64,000 bases of DNA. It comes from an uncultured SAR86 cluster bacterium (GTDB taxonomy: Bacteria > Pseudomonadota > Gammaproteobacteria > Magnimaribacterales > AG-339-G14). Made by a program: the position numbers and the translations under genes. Position 1 is the stretch's first letter. The number at the start of each line of letters is the position of its first letter. Positions 14,876-20,725 of this stretch are shown here, piece after piece. The stretch lies in contig CABZJI010000004.1 in assembly GCA_902526045.1 (NCBI GenBank), positions 1-64,000 on the forward strand, in the 5' to 3' direction. The notes under the pieces were generated by a model. It ran no database searches and was not told the origin of the DNA. It saw nothing but the letters and a program-made list of their open reading frames with translations.

Positions 14876-17800
14876 TCAACTCACTTTTAATTTTTTTTCT
14901 TTCATTTCTAACATAACTCTTTTGTAGTCAGTTGGCATTACTTTGATAAAGCTATCTACTGCACTATTCCAATTATTGAGGATTTTAGTAGCTACTGATG
15001 AATCAGTATATTTCTTATGATTTTTAATTAATTGCTTAAGCTCTTTTAAATCTTCTTTATTCTCTAAATTTTCAAGCTCAAATGTGCTGGTGTTACATTT
15101 TTTCTTGAATAGTTTTTTTGGATCATAAACATATGCAACCCCTCCACTCATGCCAGCGCCAAAATTTCTTCCAGTTTCCCCAAGAATTACAGCTATTCCT
15201 CCGGTCATATATTCACAGCCATGATCCCCGATGCCCTCAACTACCACTTTTGCTCCACTATTTCTTACACAAAATCTCTCTGCTGCAATTCCTCTAAAGT
15301 ATGCCTCACCTCCAGTGGCTCCGTATAGGGCTACATTTCCAAGAATAATATTTTCTTCAGCTAAAAAATTAGATTTTTTATCAGGATAGATTATGATTTT
15401 GCCACCCGAGAGACCTTTACCAACATAGTCATTGGCATCTCCCTCCAGCTCTAAAGTCATACCTTTGCAACTCCATGCTCCAAGACTTTGTCCAGCTGAC
15501 CCTTTTAATTTCAAATAAATAGAATCCTCAGGTAAACCATTACTTTCCCAAACTTTTGATATTTCGTTAGAGAGAATCGTTCCGAAAACCCTATCCGTAT
15601 TTCCAATTTCTTGTTCTATTTTTATCTTCTTTCTATTTCTTATGTTTGGTTTGATTTTTCTTAGCAGTTTTAGATCTAAAGATTCTTCAAGATTATGATT
15701 TTGATCTTGTGTCTTATATACATCAGTATTTTTGAAAATTCTTTCAGCAGGAGTTAAGAGATTTGATAAATCTATTCCATCTTTCTTCCAATGGTTGATG
15801 GCAGAGTCCAACTCAAGCAAATCAACTCTGCCAATCATTTCATTCAGAGTCTTTATTCCTAACTTAGCCATTATCATCCTTAATTCTTTTGCGACCATAA
15901 ATAGGTAATTTACGACATTTTCAGGGTTGCCTTTGAACTTCTCTCTAAGCTCCTTATCTTGTGTAGCTATCCCAACAGGACAGGTATTTAGGTGACACTT
16001 TCTCATCATGATACAACCCAAAGTAACTAAAGGCGCTGTTGAGAAGCCAAACTCTTCAGCTCCAAGAATCGCAGCTATTGCAACATCTCTTCCTGTTTTT
16101 AATTGACCATCTGTTTGGAGAACTACTCTTGATCTAAGATTATTCATGACTAGAGTCTGATGTGTCTCGGCAATACCAAGCTCCCAAGGAAGCCCTGCAT
16201 GTTTGATGGAAGTTAAAGGAGATGCTCCTGTTCCCCCATCGTGACCTGCTATAACTAGATGATCAGTTTTAGCTTTAACGACACCAGCTGCAATTGTGCC
16301 AACTCCTATTTCAGAGACCAATTTCACGCTTATCCTAGCTCTCCTATTTGCATTCTTTAGATCATGGATAAGTTGAGCTATGTCTTCAATGGAATAAATA
16401 TCATGATGTGGAGGAGGACTTATTAAGCCTACACCAGGGGTAGAATGCCTTATTCTTGCAATATATTGATCAACTTTCTTGCCAGGTAACTCACCGCCTT
16501 CTCCAGGTTTTGCCCCTTGAGCAATTTTTATTTGTAGCTCGTCAGAATTAGTCAAATACCACATCGTTACCCCAAATCTTCCTGAAGCAACTTGCTTTAT
16601 TGCAGATCTTTTGGATCCTCCATCTTTTAAGGGTTTAAACCTTATTGGATCCTCACCTCCCTCACCAGTATTAGATTTACCTCCAAGCTTATTCATAGCC
16701 AAAGCAAGCGACTCATGAGCTTCAGTTGAAATTGATCCCAAAGACATGGCTCCTGTAGCGAATCTTTTTACTATTTCTTTTTCCGATTCAACATGATCGA
16801 GAGGTATACCTTTTTTTGGATATTTGAACCTCATCAAACCTCTGAGAGTACTATTTTTTGTAGTTTGTTCATTGGCATGGTTAGAAAATTCCCAATATTT
16901 ACCTTCATCGTTAGTCTGAGAAGCCAATTGCAAAGAAGAAATGGATTTAGGATCCCACATGTGAGAATCTCCTCCGTTACGCCAATGAAAATCTCCAGGA
17001 TTTGGAAGAACTGAAACTTTATTTTGATCGTATTCTGGGAAACCTATTGAGTGTCTTCTTTCTACTTCCTCTGCCAGTACATCAAAATTAACTCCTTGTA
17101 CCCTGCTGGTAGTTCCAGGGAAACAAAGTTTTATTATTTCTTCTGCCAATCCAACAGCTTCAAATATTTGAGCACCTTTATAAGATTGAAGAGTAGATAT
17201 TCCCATCTTAGCCATAACTTTTAGTATGCCTTTTGCAACACCCTTTTTGTATGCATTAACAAGATCGGAGGAACTTTTCAGATTTTCATCTTGCAGGATC
17301 CCATCATCTAGAGATTTCTCTAATACATCAAATGCCAAGTAAGGATTAATGGCATCTGCACCATAACCTATAAGAAGGCAGTGGTGATGAACTTCTCGTG
17401 CTTCTCCTGATTCAACTACTAATCCCAGTTGAGTTCTCTTCTCTTTCTTGACTAAATGATGATGAATAGATGAGCAAGCAAGTAATGAACTAATAGCAAT
17501 CCTATCTTTTGATAATTCACGATCGGATAAGAGCACAAATGAATAGCCTTGCTTTATTGCTTCTTCTGAATCTGTACAAATTCTCTTCAGAGCTTTCTTT
17601 AAGCCTTTTGATTCGCTCCCTCTCTCGTAAGTGATATCGATAGTTTTAGTTTTCCATCCAAAATTCCTTAAATTTTTTATACTTTCGAGCTCTTGATTCG
17701 AAAGAATTGGATGTTTTAATCTTAATCGATGAGCATTCTTTTCATGGGAATCTAGTAAATTACTTTCAGGTCCAATCAAGCATTCAAGCGACATAATCAC

Positions 17801-19435
17801 TTCTTCCCTAATTGAATCAATGGGAGGATTAGTAATTTGAGCAAAGAGTTGTTTGAAGTAGTCGTAAATCATTCTAGGCTTGTCAGATAAACAGGCTAAG
17901 GCAGCATCATTTCCCATTGAGCCAAGAGGATCTCTTAGCTCAGTTACAATCGGAAGGAGCATGAATTCTAATGTTTCTGTTGTGTAACCAAAGGACTGCA
18001 TTCGAGAGATCAGGTCATCCTTAGAAGATTTGACTTTATATTTTTTAAGATCTTGCAAGTCTATGATTTGATTTTTGATCCAATCGCGATAAGGATGCTT
18101 TCTTGAAATGTTTTTTTTGATTTCATCATCGGGAATCATTCTTCCCTCCTCAAAGTCAATTAGAAACATTTTTCCTGGTTGCAGCCTACCTTTTGAAAGA
18201 ACCTTTGATTGATCAACTGGAAGGACTCCTACCTCTGATGCCATTATGACTTTGTCATCATCCGTGACATAAAATCTGCTTGGCCTGAGTCCATTTCTAT
18301 CTAAGACTGCTCCAACGTAATTACCATCAGTAAACACAATTGAAGCAGGTCCATCCCATGGCTCCATGAATGATGATGAGTATTCATAAAAGGCCTTTTT
18401 TGCTGAGCTCATTTCATTATCGTTCTGCCACGCTTCAGGAATCATCATCATTACTGCTTCTGAAAGTTCTCTTCCGGACATAATTAAAAGCTCCAGAACA
18501 TTGTCAAAAGATCCAGAATCTGAACAGTCTGGTTCTGCTATAGGAAATAATTTGGATATTTTTGAACCAAAGTATTCACTTCTTGCAAGACCTTGCCTTG
18601 AATACATTTGATTCATATTTCCCTTAAGTGTATTAATTTCACCGTTATGGCACATATACCTATTTGGCTGAGCTCTATCCCAAGAAGGAAATGTATTGGT
18701 ACTGAATCTTGAATGAACCATTGCAAGGTGAGTTTCAAACTTTTTATGTTCTAAATCTGGATAAAAAGGGAAAAGTTGTGCAGGAGTCAACATACCTTTG
18801 TAGGCAATTAGTCTTGAAGACAAAGTACATGCATAAAACATAAATGATTGTTTTAAATTTTCCTCATATCTCAAACGCTTAGTAAAAATTTTTCTGATCA
18901 AGTAAAGTTTTCTCTCAAACGCATCCTGATCAAGCTTCGATGCTCTTTGGATAAAAATTTGTTGAATTTCAGGTTGGCAGTCTAAAGCAGCTGGACCAAC
19001 GTTTGCCTTTTTAGCATTAACAGGTACTTTTCTCCATCCTAAAAATTTTTGACCCTCTGATTTTATTGTTTCTTCGACTACTTTTTTACAATATGATCTT
19101 TCCTTACTGTCTTGAGGAAGGAAAATATTCCCAGTAGCGTAGCTCCCAAAAGCAGGAAGATTTATTTTGATTATTTTTGCTTGTTCCTGGAAAAAAGAAT
19201 CTGGTAGAGCCATAAGAATCCCAGCTCCATCACCAGTGTTTTCCTCAAACCCACATCCGCCTCTATGGTCCATTCTAGAGTTAATTAAATAGGCATCATC
19301 CATGATCTCTCTAGAGGGGATGCCTTTAATATTGGCAACTAAGCCAACTCCACAAGAGTCTTTCTCACTGTTTGGATCGTAAAGTCCAATTTTTTTAGGA
19401 CGTTCTAGTAATTTATTTTCTTTATCTTCTACCAT
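14876..19435 (-). CDS. gltB: Glutamate synthase large (alpha) subunit
   Basis: A 1519-residue subunit, full length for the family. Cys28 in 'DSCGVGL' is the class II glutamine amidotransferase nucleophile, so a 27-residue propeptide is predicted to be removed. The FMN-binding synthase domain contains 'GGEGGEDPIRFKPL' and 'AGHDGGTGASP'. The [3Fe-4S] cluster motif C-x5-C-x4-C is seen in 'LGCIMMRKCHLNTCPVG'. The C-terminal GXGXG domain is present ('GLSGGKIIIYP', 'GMSGGVAYVYDP'). It releases ammonia from glutamine and adds it to 2-oxoglutarate. The leader carries a glutamine-riboswitch-like structure just upstream, which links expression to the enzyme's own substrate. Confidence 0.97.
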   Translation of the reverse strand: MVEDKENKLLERPKKIGLYDPNSEKDSCGVGLVANIKGIPSREIMDDAYLINSRMDHRGGCGFEENTGDGAGILMALPDSFFQEQAKIIKINLPAFGSYATGNIFLPQDSKERSYCKKVVEETIKSEGQKFLGWRKVPVNAKKANVGPAALDCQPEIQQIFIQRASKLDQDAFERKLYLIRKIFTKRLRYEENLKQSFMFYACTLSSRLIAYKGMLTPAQLFPFYPDLEHKKFETHLAMVHSRFSTNTFPSWDRAQPNRYMCHNGEINTLKGNMNQMYSRQGLARSEYFGSKISKLFPIAEPDCSDSGSFDNVLELLIMSGRELSEAVMMMIPEAWQNDNEMSSAKKAFYEYSSSFMEPWDGPASIVFTDGNYVGAVLDRNGLRPSRFYVTDDDKVIMASEVGVLPVDQSKVLSKGRLQPGKMFLIDFEEGRMIPDDEIKKNISRKHPYRDWIKNQIIDLQDLKKYKVKSSKDDLISRMQSFGYTTETLEFMLLPIVTELRDPLGSMGNDAALACLSDKPRMIYDYFKQLFAQITNPPIDSIREEVIMSLECLIGPESNLLDSHEKNAHRLRLKHPILSNQELESIKNLRNFGWKTKTIDITYERGSESKGLKKALKRICTDSEEAIKQGYSFVLLSDRELSKDRIAISSLLACSSIHHHLVKKEKRTQLGLVVESGEAREVHHHCLLIGYGADAINPYLAFDVLEKSLDDGILQDENLKSSSDLVNAYKKGVAKGILKVMAKMGISTLQSYKGAQIFEAVGLAEEIIKLCFPGTTSRVQGVNFDVLAEEVERRHSIGFPEYDQNKVSVLPNPGDFHWRNGGDSHMWDPKSISSLQLASQTNDEGKYWEFSNHANEQTTKNSTLRGLMRFKYPKKGIPLDHVESEKEIVKRFATGAMSLGSISTEAHESLALAMNKLGGKSNTGEGGEDPIRFKPLKDGGSKRSAIKQVASGRFGVTMWYLTNSDELQIKIAQGAKPGEGGELPGKKVDQYIARIRHSTPGVGLISPPPHHDIYSIEDIAQLIHDLKNANRRARISVKLVSEIGVGTIAAGVVKAKTDHLVIAGHDGGTGASPLTSIKHAGLPWELGIAETHQTLVMNNLRSRVVLQTDGQLKTGRDVAIAAILGAEEFGFSTAPLVTLGCIMMRKCHLNTCPVGIATQDKELREKFKGNPENVVNYLFMVAKELRMIMAKLGIKTLNEMIGRVDLLELDSAINHWKKDGIDLSNLLTPAERIFKNTDVYKTQDQNHNLEESLDLKLLRKIKPNIRNRKKIKIEQEIGNTDRVFGTILSNEISKVWESNGLPEDSIYLKLKGSAGQSLGAWSCKGMTLELEGDANDYVGKGLSGGKIIIYPDKKSNFLAEENIILGNVALYGATGGEAYFRGIAAERFCVRNSGAKVVVEGIGDHGCEYMTGGIAVILGETGRNFGAGMSGGVAYVYDPKKLFKKKCNTSTFELENLENKEDLKELKQLIKNHKKYTDSSVATKILNNWNSAVDSFIKVMPTDYKRVMLEMKEKKLKVS

Positions 19436-19446
19436 CGATAATATTC

Positions 19447-19468
19447 CATCCTTCCTATTAGAAAGATG
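19447..19468 (-). promoter_or_regulatory. Ribosome-site-sequestering hairpin in the gltB leader
   Basis: Directly after the riboswitch aptamer, CATCTTTC (19468-19461) pairs with GAAGGATG (19454-19447) to form an 8-bp stem, with one G-U pair, closed by a 6-nt loop. The 3' arm holds the purine-rich gltB ribosome-binding region (GGAAGGATGG). The first C of the stem is also the last base of the conserved aptamer AACGC, so the two folds could compete. This is the layout of a translation-controlling expression platform. Confidence 0.65.
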
Positions 19469-19522
19469 CGTTCCTTCGGTTTTATTTTTTACCTACTTCC
19501 GTCCTTTAAATAAGGATGAACG
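19468..19522 (-). promoter_or_regulatory. Glutamine riboswitch aptamer (glnA RNA class) of gltBD
   Basis: On the minus strand CGTTC (19522-19518) pairs with GAACG (19473-19469) to form P1. P2 is TCCTT/AAGGA around a 5-nt loop (19516-19502). After it comes the invariant 'CGGAAGTAGG', then P3 GGT...ACC with a 10-nt A-rich loop, then 'CCGAAGGAACGC'. Both the conserved blocks and the three-way-junction layout match my recollection of the glnA RNA consensus, which binds L-glutamine and is best known from cyanobacteria and marine metagenomes. It sits 33-87 nt upstream of the gltB ATG, as expected for a cis-regulator of glutamate synthase. Confidence 0.88.
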
Positions 19523-19525
19523 ATT

Positions 19526-19543
19526 GATCTTAAGCCCAAGATC
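19526..19543 (-). promoter_or_regulatory. Perfect inverted repeat at the 5' side of the riboswitch
   Basis: GATCTT (19543-19538) and AAGATC (19531-19526) on the minus strand pair around a 6-nt loop, four bases before the aptamer P1 stem. It may be a 5' stabilising hairpin of the leader RNA or a DNA-binding site. It has no T-run, so it is not a terminator. Confidence 0.4.
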
Positions 19544-19575
19544 GCAAGGAAGAATAATGATTTCTTATAAGTTTA

Positions 19576-19605
19576 TTTATACCAAAATATCATAAAAAAG
19601 ACCAA
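19576..19605 (-). promoter_or_regulatory. Candidate sigma70 promoter of gltBD
   Basis: On the minus strand TTGGTC (19605-19600), an 18-bp spacer and TATAAA (19581-19576). Transcription from about 19569 would give a leader of about 134 nt that contains the whole riboswitch and hairpin. The placement in the only sizeable gap between aroB and gltB supports it. Confidence 0.5.
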
Positions 19606-19636
19606 TTTTTATTCTGTAATATAAAAATTATATTTT

Positions 19637-20725
19637 TTATATTTTTATGCTATTTAGAATTTTATCATCAGGAACATTTTCAACAATTTCAACTTTTCCT
19701 AGACCATTTAATATGATGAACCTTAAGTTGTTATTTTTGTTCTTTTTATCCATCTCCATTGCTTTTAAAATTTTTTGAGGTTCACAATTAGAAGGTAATT
19801 TTGTTGGGAGTTTATATTTTTTTATGACACATTTAACTCTATTAAATTCCTTAACTGTCAATTTTTTAAGTAAAAAAGATAATTTTGCTGCACATAGCAT
19901 ACCAACCCCTACAGCCTCTCCATGATTTAATCCTTTAAAAGATTGGACGCTCTCAATTGCATGAGCATAAGTATGTCCAAAGTTTAGGTGCGCTCTAATC
20001 GATTTCTCTTCTTCATCTTGCTCCACAATTTTTGCTTTTATTTTTGAAGATATCTTGATGAGGTCTGCCAAATCAATATAGTCTGTTCTTTTTCCTAACT
20101 TTCGTCCAAATCTCTCTAATTTTGATAAAAGTCTCATATCGTCAATAAGTGCATGCTTAATTATTTCTGAATATCCAGCAGCCATGTGCCTTTTACTGAG
20201 TGATTTTAGAAAATATGTATCAATCAACACAGCTTTAGGCTGCTTAAATGCACCAATCATATTTTTAAAATTTTTACTGTTAACCCCTGTCTTGCCTCCT
20301 ATAGAAGCATCCACCTGAGCCAGAAGAGTGGTAGGAATGTGCATTACCTCTACTCCACGAAGATATATCGAGGCTACAAAGCCCGAGAGATCCGTTGTGA
20401 TACCGCCGCCAAAAGAAACAATCAACGAATTTCTAGAAAATTTCAAATCTATTAATTTTTCTATAATTTTTTGAGAGGTCTCAATAGATTTATTTTTTTC
20501 ATTTGCAGTAAATTTTAATGATTCAAATTTACTCGGTTTTGATTTCCGTATGAAGCTCTTTATTTTTCTGATTGATGAATCAGGCAGCTTTGAGTCAAAA
20601 ATAAGAAAAATTTCTTTTGAATTGGATATCTTTTTTAGGGAAAAGCTATTAACAAAATTATCACCAAAATAAATGGAGTAATTTGAACTAGGAGAACTTA
20701 CTTTTAATTGTTTAATTGTTTTCAT
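19637..20725 (-). CDS. aroB: 3-dehydroquinate synthase
   Basis: A 362-residue NAD- and metal-dependent enzyme that cyclises DAHP to 3-dehydroquinate, step two of the shikimate pathway. It shows the NAD-binding 'SFGGGITTDLSGFVASIYLRG' type core, 'TTLLAQVDASIGGKTG', and the metal ligands in 'YSEIIKHALI' and 'LNFGHTYAHAIE' and 'LNHGEAVGVGM'. Length is normal. The start overlaps the aroK stop by 14 bp, the usual aroK-aroB coupling. In related bacteria damX and sometimes hemE separate aroB from gltB; here only the gltB leader lies between. Confidence 0.96.
   Translation of the reverse strand: MKTIKQLKVSSPSSNYSIYFGDNFVNSFSLKKISNSKEIFLIFDSKLPDSSIRKIKSFIRKSKPSKFESLKFTANEKNKSIETSQKIIEKLIDLKFSRNSLIVSFGGGITTDLSGFVASIYLRGVEVMHIPTTLLAQVDASIGGKTGVNSKNFKNMIGAFKQPKAVLIDTYFLKSLSKRHMAAGYSEIIKHALIDDMRLLSKLERFGRKLGKRTDYIDLADLIKISSKIKAKIVEQDEEEKSIRAHLNFGHTYAHAIESVQSFKGLNHGEAVGVGMLCAAKLSFLLKKLTVKEFNRVKCVIKKYKLPTKLPSNCEPQKILKAMEMDKKNKNNNLRFIILNGLGKVEIVENVPDDKILNSIKI

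What the first reader, a model, noticed from the sequence alone, without database searches (positions are those of the whole stretch)
19436..19605. Glutamine riboswitch (glnA class) with a translation switch in the gltBD leader
Seen: three helices in the order P1 (CGTTC/GAACG), P2 (TCCTT/AAGGA) and P3 (GGT/ACC), with conserved joiners CGGAAGTAGG and CCGAAGGAACGC, and then an 8-bp hairpin that captures the gltB ribosome site. The final C of the aptamer is also the first base of that hairpin. Known: glnA RNAs bind L-glutamine and are mostly described in cyanobacteria and marine metagenomes. Inference: glutamine, the substrate of glutamate synthase, sets GltBD synthesis by switching between aptamer and ribosome-site hairpin. 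Finding it in a gammaproteobacterial gltB leader, at a locus syntenic with aroKB, is noteworthy.
Basis: partly seen in the sequence, partly recalled or inferred. Interest (0 to 1): 0.88.

Follow-up and report, generated by a model that had tools for sequence, protein, structure and literature searches.

The report
Glutamine riboswitch before gltB in SAR86
An uncultured ocean bacterium of the SAR86 group carries a well-formed glutamine-sensing RNA switch in front of its glutamate synthase gene; the switch is a known type, but close relatives have a different, undescribed RNA element at the same place.

Summary
Infernal finds a glutamine-I (glnA, RF01739) aptamer at 19524-19465 (-), 65.7 bits against a 35-bit cut-off, directly before gltB (19435-14876). 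A hairpin of 8-9 pairs starting on the first base after P1 (C19468) hides the ribosome site. C19468 corresponds to C60, which pairs with G23 when glutamine is bound, so one base serves both folds. The same design is predicted in 39 of 47 cyanobacterial tail clusters, the setting of proven glutamine ON switches; among 42 non-cyanobacterial clusters it occurs before gltB/gltD or small ORFs (10 of 14), not before the rest (0 of 28: glutamine synthetase, amt and others). I predict that glutamine turns GltB translation ON; direction is inferred. The order is SAR86. Class and gene association are known (metagenomes, 2010): a new member of a known kind. The context is newer: sister genera carry an undescribed tandem-pseudoknot RNA at gltB (23 of 23 genomes with a gltB match), and 18 of 18 g3/g4 leaders have an NtrC-like site upstream. 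The riboswitch genus lacks full-length NtrC (0 of 9; AAA+ domain missing) and detectable sigma-54. The pseudoknot RNA is the most novel lead.

The parts
19465..19524 (-). glutamine-I (glnA) aptamer, RF01739
   Evidence: cmscan 65.7 bits, gathering 35; single hit in the held genome, 93% complete
19518..19522 (-). P1, 5' strand (pairs with 19469-19473)
   Evidence: 35 of 35 cells paired in 7 genomes, invariant
19469..19473 (-). P1, 3' strand
19502..19516 (-). P2 hairpin (19516-19512/19506-19502)
   Evidence: compensatory change at 19513-19505
19478..19493 (-). P3 hairpin (19493-19491/19480-19478)
   Evidence: invariant
19499..19500 (-). G-G of joiner J2/3, equivalent to G22 and G23 of the solved aptamer
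   Evidence: register by P1 and CGGAAG against the crystallised sequence printed in PMC5393176; role in PMC11477058
19468..19468 (-). C equivalent to C60: linchpin partner of G23 in the bound aptamer and first base of the sequestering hairpin
19447..19468 (-). ribosome-site sequestering hairpin (19468-19461/19454-19447, plus 19460-19455)
   Evidence: dG -8.6 kcal/mol (8 pairs), -5.4 without the C19468 pair; shuffles
19449..19455 (-). Shine-Dalgarno-like GGAAGGA, 13 nt before the start codon
   Evidence: sequence
19527..19531 (-). AAGAU that can pair with 19463-19467 below P1 (candidate anti-sequestor) or with 19538-19542 (upstream hairpin)
   Evidence: pairing kept in 7 of 7 genomes but invariant, so untested by covariation
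19538..19543 (-). GAUCUU, 5' arm of the upstream hairpin with 19526-19531
   Evidence: invariant
19548..19554 (-). UUCUUCC, complementary to GGAAGGA (19455-19449), a possible second sequestor
   Evidence: pairs in 7 of 7 genomes, one U-A to U-G change
14876..19435 (-). gltB, glutamate synthase large subunit (1519 aa)
   Evidence: PF00310, PF04898, PF01645, PF01493
13429..14874 (-). gltD, glutamate synthase small subunit (481 aa)
   Evidence: PF14691, PF07992, and position after gltB
19637..20725 (-). aroB, upstream neighbour
   Evidence: PF01761, PF24621
20712..21218 (-). aroK, upstream neighbour
   Evidence: PF01202

Best explanation
The gltB leader is a translational glutamine-I riboswitch, most likely an ON switch. 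Without glutamine, C19468 and the bases after it (CAUCUUUCU) pair with the ribosome site and GltB is translated poorly. Glutamine binding draws G19499 (G23) into the base of P1 to pair with C19468 (C60), taking the first pair from the hairpin and stabilising P1 beside it; in this genus AAGAU 5' of P1 can also pair with AUCUU 3' of P1 and may help open the hairpin. Glutamine, the substrate of GltBD, then raises GltBD synthesis. Shown: aptamer match, hairpin, shared base, gene order. Inferred: binding, opening, direction.
For: RF01739 65.7 bits, conserved joiners kept. Hairpin not chance: 11 of 5000 shuffles. The bound glutamine-I aptamer has the G23-C60 linchpin pair (PMC11477058; PMC5393176). 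Losing the C19468 pair costs the hairpin 3.2 of 8.6 kcal/mol. Ribosome site 0-4% unpaired in the models without AAGAU/AUCUU forced. Predicted pairing probability of that C is 0.99 here; above 0.5 in 39 of 47 cyanobacterial tail clusters (mean 0.78, shuffles 0.15), cyanobacteria being where glutamine switches are reported to activate expression (PMC6316151 passages). Among 42 non-cyanobacterial clusters the design precedes gltB/gltD or small ORFs in 10 of 14 and other genes in 0 of 28, Fisher p 7e-7 (grouping made after seeing the data). Seven of 9 genomes of the genus have it at gltB; of the other two, one has no gltB match and one only gltB pieces at contig ends.
Against: No ligand or expression data. 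Only one hairpin pair is directly contested, so coupling may be weak. The ribosome site lies 13 nt before AUG (15 nt in 4 of the 7 leaders), long for a Shine-Dalgarno. The anti-sequestor pairing is invariant and so untested; with it forced, the ribosome site is still only 15% unpaired. The free MFE is not the aptamer fold but one with the 5' UUCUUCC region paired across (-30.4 against -28.9). The two other gltB/gltD riboswitches found (L049, L052) do not show the C-paired hairpin (0.00), nor do 2 of 10 small-ORF leaders and 8 of 47 cyanobacterial clusters.
Confidence: 0.65

Rival explanations
1. It is a glutamine riboswitch but an OFF switch: glutamine binding melts a helix below P1 (AAGAU/AUCUU), freeing AUCUU to join the ribosome-site hairpin, so GltB falls when glutamine is plentiful.
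For: A helix below P1 is possible and kept in 7 of 7 genomes. I recall, from the abstract of Ren et al. 2015 (not held), that ligand binding melts a short helix below P1 in the cyanobacterial aptamer. In relatives glutamine switches precede glutamine synthetase and amt, where repression by glutamine would be expected.
Against: The hairpin uses C19468, which the bound aptamer also uses; the glutamine synthetase and amt leaders lack this hairpin (within the 0 of 28), so the two gene groups look differently wired; the matching cyanobacterial design is found where ON switches are reported.
Confidence: 0.2
2. The aptamer binds glutamine but acts on transcription (Rho access or another terminator) or on mRNA stability rather than on translation initiation.
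For: The leader precedes a 6-kb gltBD pair; translation and Rho access are often coupled (general knowledge).
Against: No intrinsic-terminator-like site in 19400-19720; the hairpin covers the ribosome site.
Confidence: 0.08
3. A decayed or re-purposed aptamer that no longer answers to glutamine.
For: No binding data for a SAR86 aptamer in the passages and listings seen.
Against: Conserved joiner positions kept at 65.7 bits; kept in 7 of 7 leaders of the genus while P2 and loops vary.
Confidence: 0.05

Closest known systems
Glutamine-I (glnA, RF01739) riboswitches of cyanobacteria, as before gifB (IF17) and other DUF4278 genes
   Same: Same aptamer; same predicted platform, a hairpin starting on C60 (39 of 47 clusters; the genes behind them were judged by eye, many with YRG-type small ORFs)
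   Different: Gene is gltB, not a glutamine synthetase inhibitor; host is a gammaproteobacterium; AAGAU and UUCUUCC elements 5' of the aptamer, not looked for in cyanobacteria
glnA motif of cyanobacteria and marine metagenomes (Weinberg et al. 2010, PMC2864571, passages)
   Same: Already linked to glutamate synthase, glutamine synthetase, PII and ammonium transporter genes; tandem forms noted
   Different: Taxon there given only as cyanobacteria and marine; here placed in SAR86, with alphaproteobacterial and other marine records beside it
Glutamine-II (Downstream-peptide, RF01704)
   Same: Same ligand, ON switch (PMC6698751 passages)
   Different: Different fold; no RF01704 match in the window
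Methylophage Melnitz and pelagiphage Mosig glutamine riboswitch (PMC9004378 passages)
   Same: glnA-type switch in streamlined marine hosts
   Different: Viral, with a tmRNA gene; that paper reports none in its OM43 host

Membership tests
Glutamine-I riboswitch (RF01739) | Covariance-model score above the curated gathering score | tested here: met
   65.7 against 35 bits
Glutamine-I riboswitch (RF01739) | Three-helix junction P1-P2-P3 with the conserved joiners | tested here: met
Glutamine-I riboswitch (RF01739) | G22, G23 and C60 at the ligand site | tested here: met
   19500, 19499 and 19468 in register
Glutamine-I riboswitch (RF01739) | Leader of a nitrogen-metabolism gene | tested here: met
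   gltB by Pfam
Glutamine-I riboswitch (RF01739) | Selective L-glutamine binding | not testable with these tools
   needs in-line probing or SHAPE
Glutamine-I riboswitch (RF01739) | Glutamine-dependent expression of the gene | not testable with these tools
   needs a reporter fusion
Translational ON switch of the cyanobacterial type | Hairpin starting on C60 that captures the ribosome site | tested here: met
Translational ON switch of the cyanobacterial type | Expression rises with glutamine | not testable with these tools
   needs a reporter fusion
Glutamine-II riboswitch (RF01704) | Match to the RF01704 model | tested here: not met
   no match at gathering threshold in the window

The most novel reading that the evidence does not exclude
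Within one SAR86 family the gltB leader has swapped one RNA sensor for another. Sister genera carry an undescribed array of two or three H-type pseudoknots, whose last strand in about half of the leaders runs straight into a start-site-hiding helix; the window's genus has the glutamine aptamer there instead and has lost the AAA+ domain of NtrC. The pseudoknot array would then be a new riboswitch class sensing glutamine or another signal of nitrogen status, and the glutamine riboswitch a replacement for it and for NtrC.
Probability: 0.2. Interest if true: 0.82.

Novelty: new member of a known kind. Interest (0 to 1): 0.55.

Why it matters
It gives a host group to glnA RNAs of the marine metagenomes, which a 2018 review (PMC6316151, passages) left as environmental sequence while calling glutamine riboswitches restricted but common to cyanobacteria. 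It suggests a rule by which one aptamer may be wired with opposite signs in different genes, and a natural experiment in which glutamine-sensing RNA on core nitrogen genes coincides with loss of full-length NtrC in a group described as one of the most abundant of the surface ocean (PMC11582366, abstract in a listing). It also exposes a candidate new RNA class at the same gene.

Tried and rejected
Chance resemblance: rejected. Glutamine-II: no match. A terminator-based switch: no terminator-like site. A conserved leader peptide: the AUG of GGAUG opens MEYYRW* in the window and MKH* in the other subgroup of the genus (read by eye); not conserved, dropped, though both end close to the gltB start and L017 has GTG there. 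Covariation in the genus: too little variation except in P2. Pseudoknot element in viral contigs: one hit in IMG/VR, inside an unrelated open frame. Rfam for the pseudoknot leaders: five loci scanned, one weak hit of 25 bits. Phylum sample: 1 of 299 genomes, the own one.

In some searches clade labels were set by hand from record titles, loci above L150 were left out, and tails were clustered at 34 of 45 identical bases (125 distinct tails to 89 clusters, 47 cyanobacterial and 42 not). In one search genes were assigned by similarity to nine reference ORFs and, for small ORFs, by hand; Pfam was run on representatives only. Treating circularly permuted ATP-grasp as outside core nitrogen genes was my choice. 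One search held one wrongly sliced row (L156) and was replaced. Whole-genome searches of over 40 genomes used stricter filters: the seven long-P3 loci L024-L030 scored 28-35 bits there and 42-46 when scanned directly. RF01739 hits of G018 and G023 were not read.

Papers: Ren 2015, Klahn 2018 and Ames and Breaker 2011 are not held; what I say of Ren's abstract is recalled. From PMC2864571, PMC6316151, PMC6698751, PMC5393176, PMC11477058, PMC9004378, PMC9481103, PMC8632094, PMC11109978 and PMC11582366 I saw passages only; others only in search listings. That I know of no earlier report of a SAR86 gltB glutamine riboswitch rests, in an open-licence library only and partly on listings.

Full report
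Observation. Rfam's RF01739 model matches 19524-19465 over its full length with 65.7 bits, gathering score 35, E 2.6e-12, with no non-standard pair marked. It is the only match in the held genome of 1.2 Mb, 93% complete. gltB follows at 19435-14876 and gltD at 14874-13429; aroB and aroK lie upstream on the same strand.

Platform. The first base after P1, C19468, begins a hairpin of eight pairs (nine with a U-G) that contains GGAAGGA. A nine-pair helix from that base arises in 11 of 5000 shuffles. The equivalent base in the solved aptamer, C60, pairs with G23 when glutamine is bound: PMC11477058 calls it a linchpin pair through which P1 stability is regulated (passages), and PMC5393176 says that G23-C60 in the bound form proved correct. 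Here G23 is G19499. The bound aptamer and the hairpin thus compete for one base; losing that pair costs the hairpin 3.2 of 8.6 kcal/mol in the model. Further 5' elements, AAGAU, GAUCUU and UUCUUCC, can each pair with parts of the hairpin or with each other. They are kept in all 7 leaders of the genus but hardly vary, so covariation cannot choose between them. The ribosome site is 0-4% unpaired in six of the seven models run and 15% in the one with the aptamer and AAGAU/AUCUU forced. The free MFE is not the aptamer fold.

Direction. I folded the 70 nt after the last aptamer for 89 tail clusters (125 distinct tails). The C is predicted paired (over 0.5) in 39 of 47 cyanobacterial clusters, mean 0.78 against 0.15 in shuffles; in cyanobacteria the switch is reported to activate expression on glutamine binding (PMC6316151, passages). 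In the 42 non-cyanobacterial clusters it is paired in 10: 2 gltB leaders, both of the window's genus, and 8 leaders of small ORFs. It is not in 2 small-ORF leaders, in the gltB and gltD leaders of two other gammaproteobacterial records (L049, L052), and in the 28 remaining leaders: 10 glutamine synthetase, 9 circularly permuted ATP-grasp, 3 Gcw_chp (followed by an ammonium-transporter ORF, Pfam-tested in L002), 2 amt and 4 unassigned. Fisher p is 7e-7, but the grouping was made after seeing the data. I conclude that the window's leader has the ON-type platform. Induction of GltBD by its substrate would make sense; this is inference.

Distribution. Contigs of the searched genomes agree in length with records titled SAR86 (G057:C1 with CACATF010000001.1, G056:C1 with CACEDS010000001.1, G055:C46 with CALJGK010000046.1; these lie in families f4, f3 and f2 of the window's order), so I take the order to be SAR86. 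RF01739 occurs in 34 of 61 genomes of the order (23 over the cut-off), in 3 of 274 genomes drawn from the class, all three of this order, and in 1 of 299 from the phylum, the own one. A pattern scan of GTDB contigs, stopped at 120 stretches, gave by my hand labels 56 cyanobacterial records, 11 titled SAR86, 6 other gammaproteobacterial and 47 alphaproteobacterial or other. Within SAR86 the associated genes in the loci read are gltB (genus g1), glutamine synthetase II and a Gcw_chp-amt cluster (family f4; glutamine synthetase also in G050), circularly permuted ATP-grasp (f3) and DUF4278-like or other small ORFs (f1, f2, f3).

What relatives have at gltB. Seven of 9 genomes of genus g1 carry the riboswitch there; the other two have no gltB match or only gltB pieces at contig ends. 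None of the 21 g2, g3 and g4 gltB leaders read shows the aptamer, and the RF01739 hits of those genomes lie elsewhere. They carry two or three tandem units of the form N-GCAT-N-TCAC-ATGC-N-NN-AAAA-GTGA, in which the loop can pair with the tail. A pattern search with up to 3 mismatches finds the unit in 23 of 28 g2/g3/g4 genomes, each time just before gltB; the 5 without it are the 5 in which no gltB was matched. It is in 0 of 9 g1 genomes, and elsewhere in the order only as a 2- and a 3-mismatch hit in two f2 genomes; the reversed control pattern gave none. Over 14 unit variants that I copied out, 96.8% of cells pair, the pseudoknot helix is 100% paired, 3 of its 4 pairs change on both sides, and 0 of 500 shuffles reach the covariation score; but the number of pairs with a both-sided change and the number of pair types are reached by 88 and 96 of 500 shuffles. 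The signal leans on differences between the repeated and the terminal unit type, and the shorter or longer terminal units of g2 and most g4 were left out of that alignment. In 12 of 23 leaders an 8-pair helix starting on the base after the terminal unit covers the bases just before, in one leader into, the presumed GTG start. In five loci scanned Rfam gave only one hit, of 25 bits. In the gltB tree g1 is a clade (100/100) and lies between pseudoknot-bearing groups if the root is placed on f2; the drawn root is the midpoint, and g3 and g4 are not clades in that tree, so gltB transfer is possible.

Protein regulators. Full-length NtrC is found in 40 of 61 genomes; the 21 without it are all 9 of g1, all 8 of f4, G050, and G022, G027 and G049. 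In the window's genome ntrB is followed by a 256-aa ORF with receiver and Fis-type HTH domains but no sigma-54 activation domain, against 465 aa with it in G009. A glutamine riboswitch on gltB, glutamine synthetase or the amt cluster was seen in 16 genomes, none with full-length NtrC; of the other 45, 40 have it (Fisher p 1e-10 over genomes, which are not independent; 0.003 over 14 genera). Sigma-54 is not found in any of 9 g1, 8 f4 and 13 g3 genomes or in G050 and G058; 10 of 15 g2/g4 genomes have only a C-terminal fragment and 14 genomes of f2 and f3 a full-length match; so the link is with NtrC rather than sigma-54. PII is missing from 10 of 61: 8 of 8 f4, G050 and G019; the own genome has it. 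NtrC-like sites (TGCAC-N7-GTGCA) lie 68-83 nt before the first unit's CACATGC core in 18 of 18 g3/g4 leaders and in 0 of 5 g2 leaders. With a similar pattern and one mismatch allowed, none of the listed hits of the 7 g1 genomes lies at gltB. The NtrC consensus is recalled.

Verdict. It is a new member of a known kind. The surroundings, a riboswitch standing where relatives have a different RNA and keep full-length NtrC, raise its interest.

Noticed in passing
L162-L177, L180-L184, L190, L201 (gltB leaders of genera g2, g3, g4): Two or three tandem H-type pseudoknot units before gltB with compensatory changes in the pseudoknot helix, followed in 12 of 23 by a start-hiding helix; no convincing Rfam match in the five loci scanned. 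Candidate new structured RNA.
   Followed up: partly
L024-L030, L208-L210: A glutamine aptamer variant with a long, strongly conserved insert in P3 (72 and 77 nt in the two alignments shown), before a DUF4278-like small ORF, in three SAR86 families. RNAalifold on seven of them finds 6 pairs with both-sided changes, in P2 and in an inner hairpin of the insert.
   Followed up: partly
L206:1972-2742 (-), own genome C1: NtrC reduced to receiver plus Fis-type HTH, AAA+ domain missing, next to ntrB; the same match pattern in 7 of 9 genomes of the genus, only weak receiver hits in the other two.
   Followed up: partly
G009, G012, G014, G015, G017, G018, G020, G021, G023, G026: ORFs of 78-91 aa that match only the C-terminal part of sigma-54 (model 356-434) in genera without a full rpoN match.
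   Followed up: no
L021, L024, L029, L085, L123: DUF4278-like small proteins (YRG repeats) behind glutamine riboswitches in SAR86 and one Porticoccaceae-titled record; one (L123) passes the Pfam cut-off, 30.2 against 25.3 bits, the others fall below it. In cyanobacteria DUF4278 covers the N-terminal part of a glutamine synthetase inhibitor (PMC6316151 passages).
   Followed up: partly
L049, L052: Glutamine riboswitches before gltB and gltD in two other gammaproteobacterial records with a different tail (CACCAAAC/GTTTGGTG, with a second CATCAAAC or CATCAAAT partner downstream).
   Followed up: no
G039, G042, G045, G048, G050, G051, G054, G057, G060: SAR86 genomes without a PII match and without full-length NtrC, in which glutamine aptamers precede glutamine synthetase or an amt cluster.
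   Followed up: partly
window 19581-19576 (-): TATAAA after TTTTTTGG or ATTTTGG, kept in all 7 leaders of the genus, a possible -10 element; the promoter scan did not report it.
   Followed up: no
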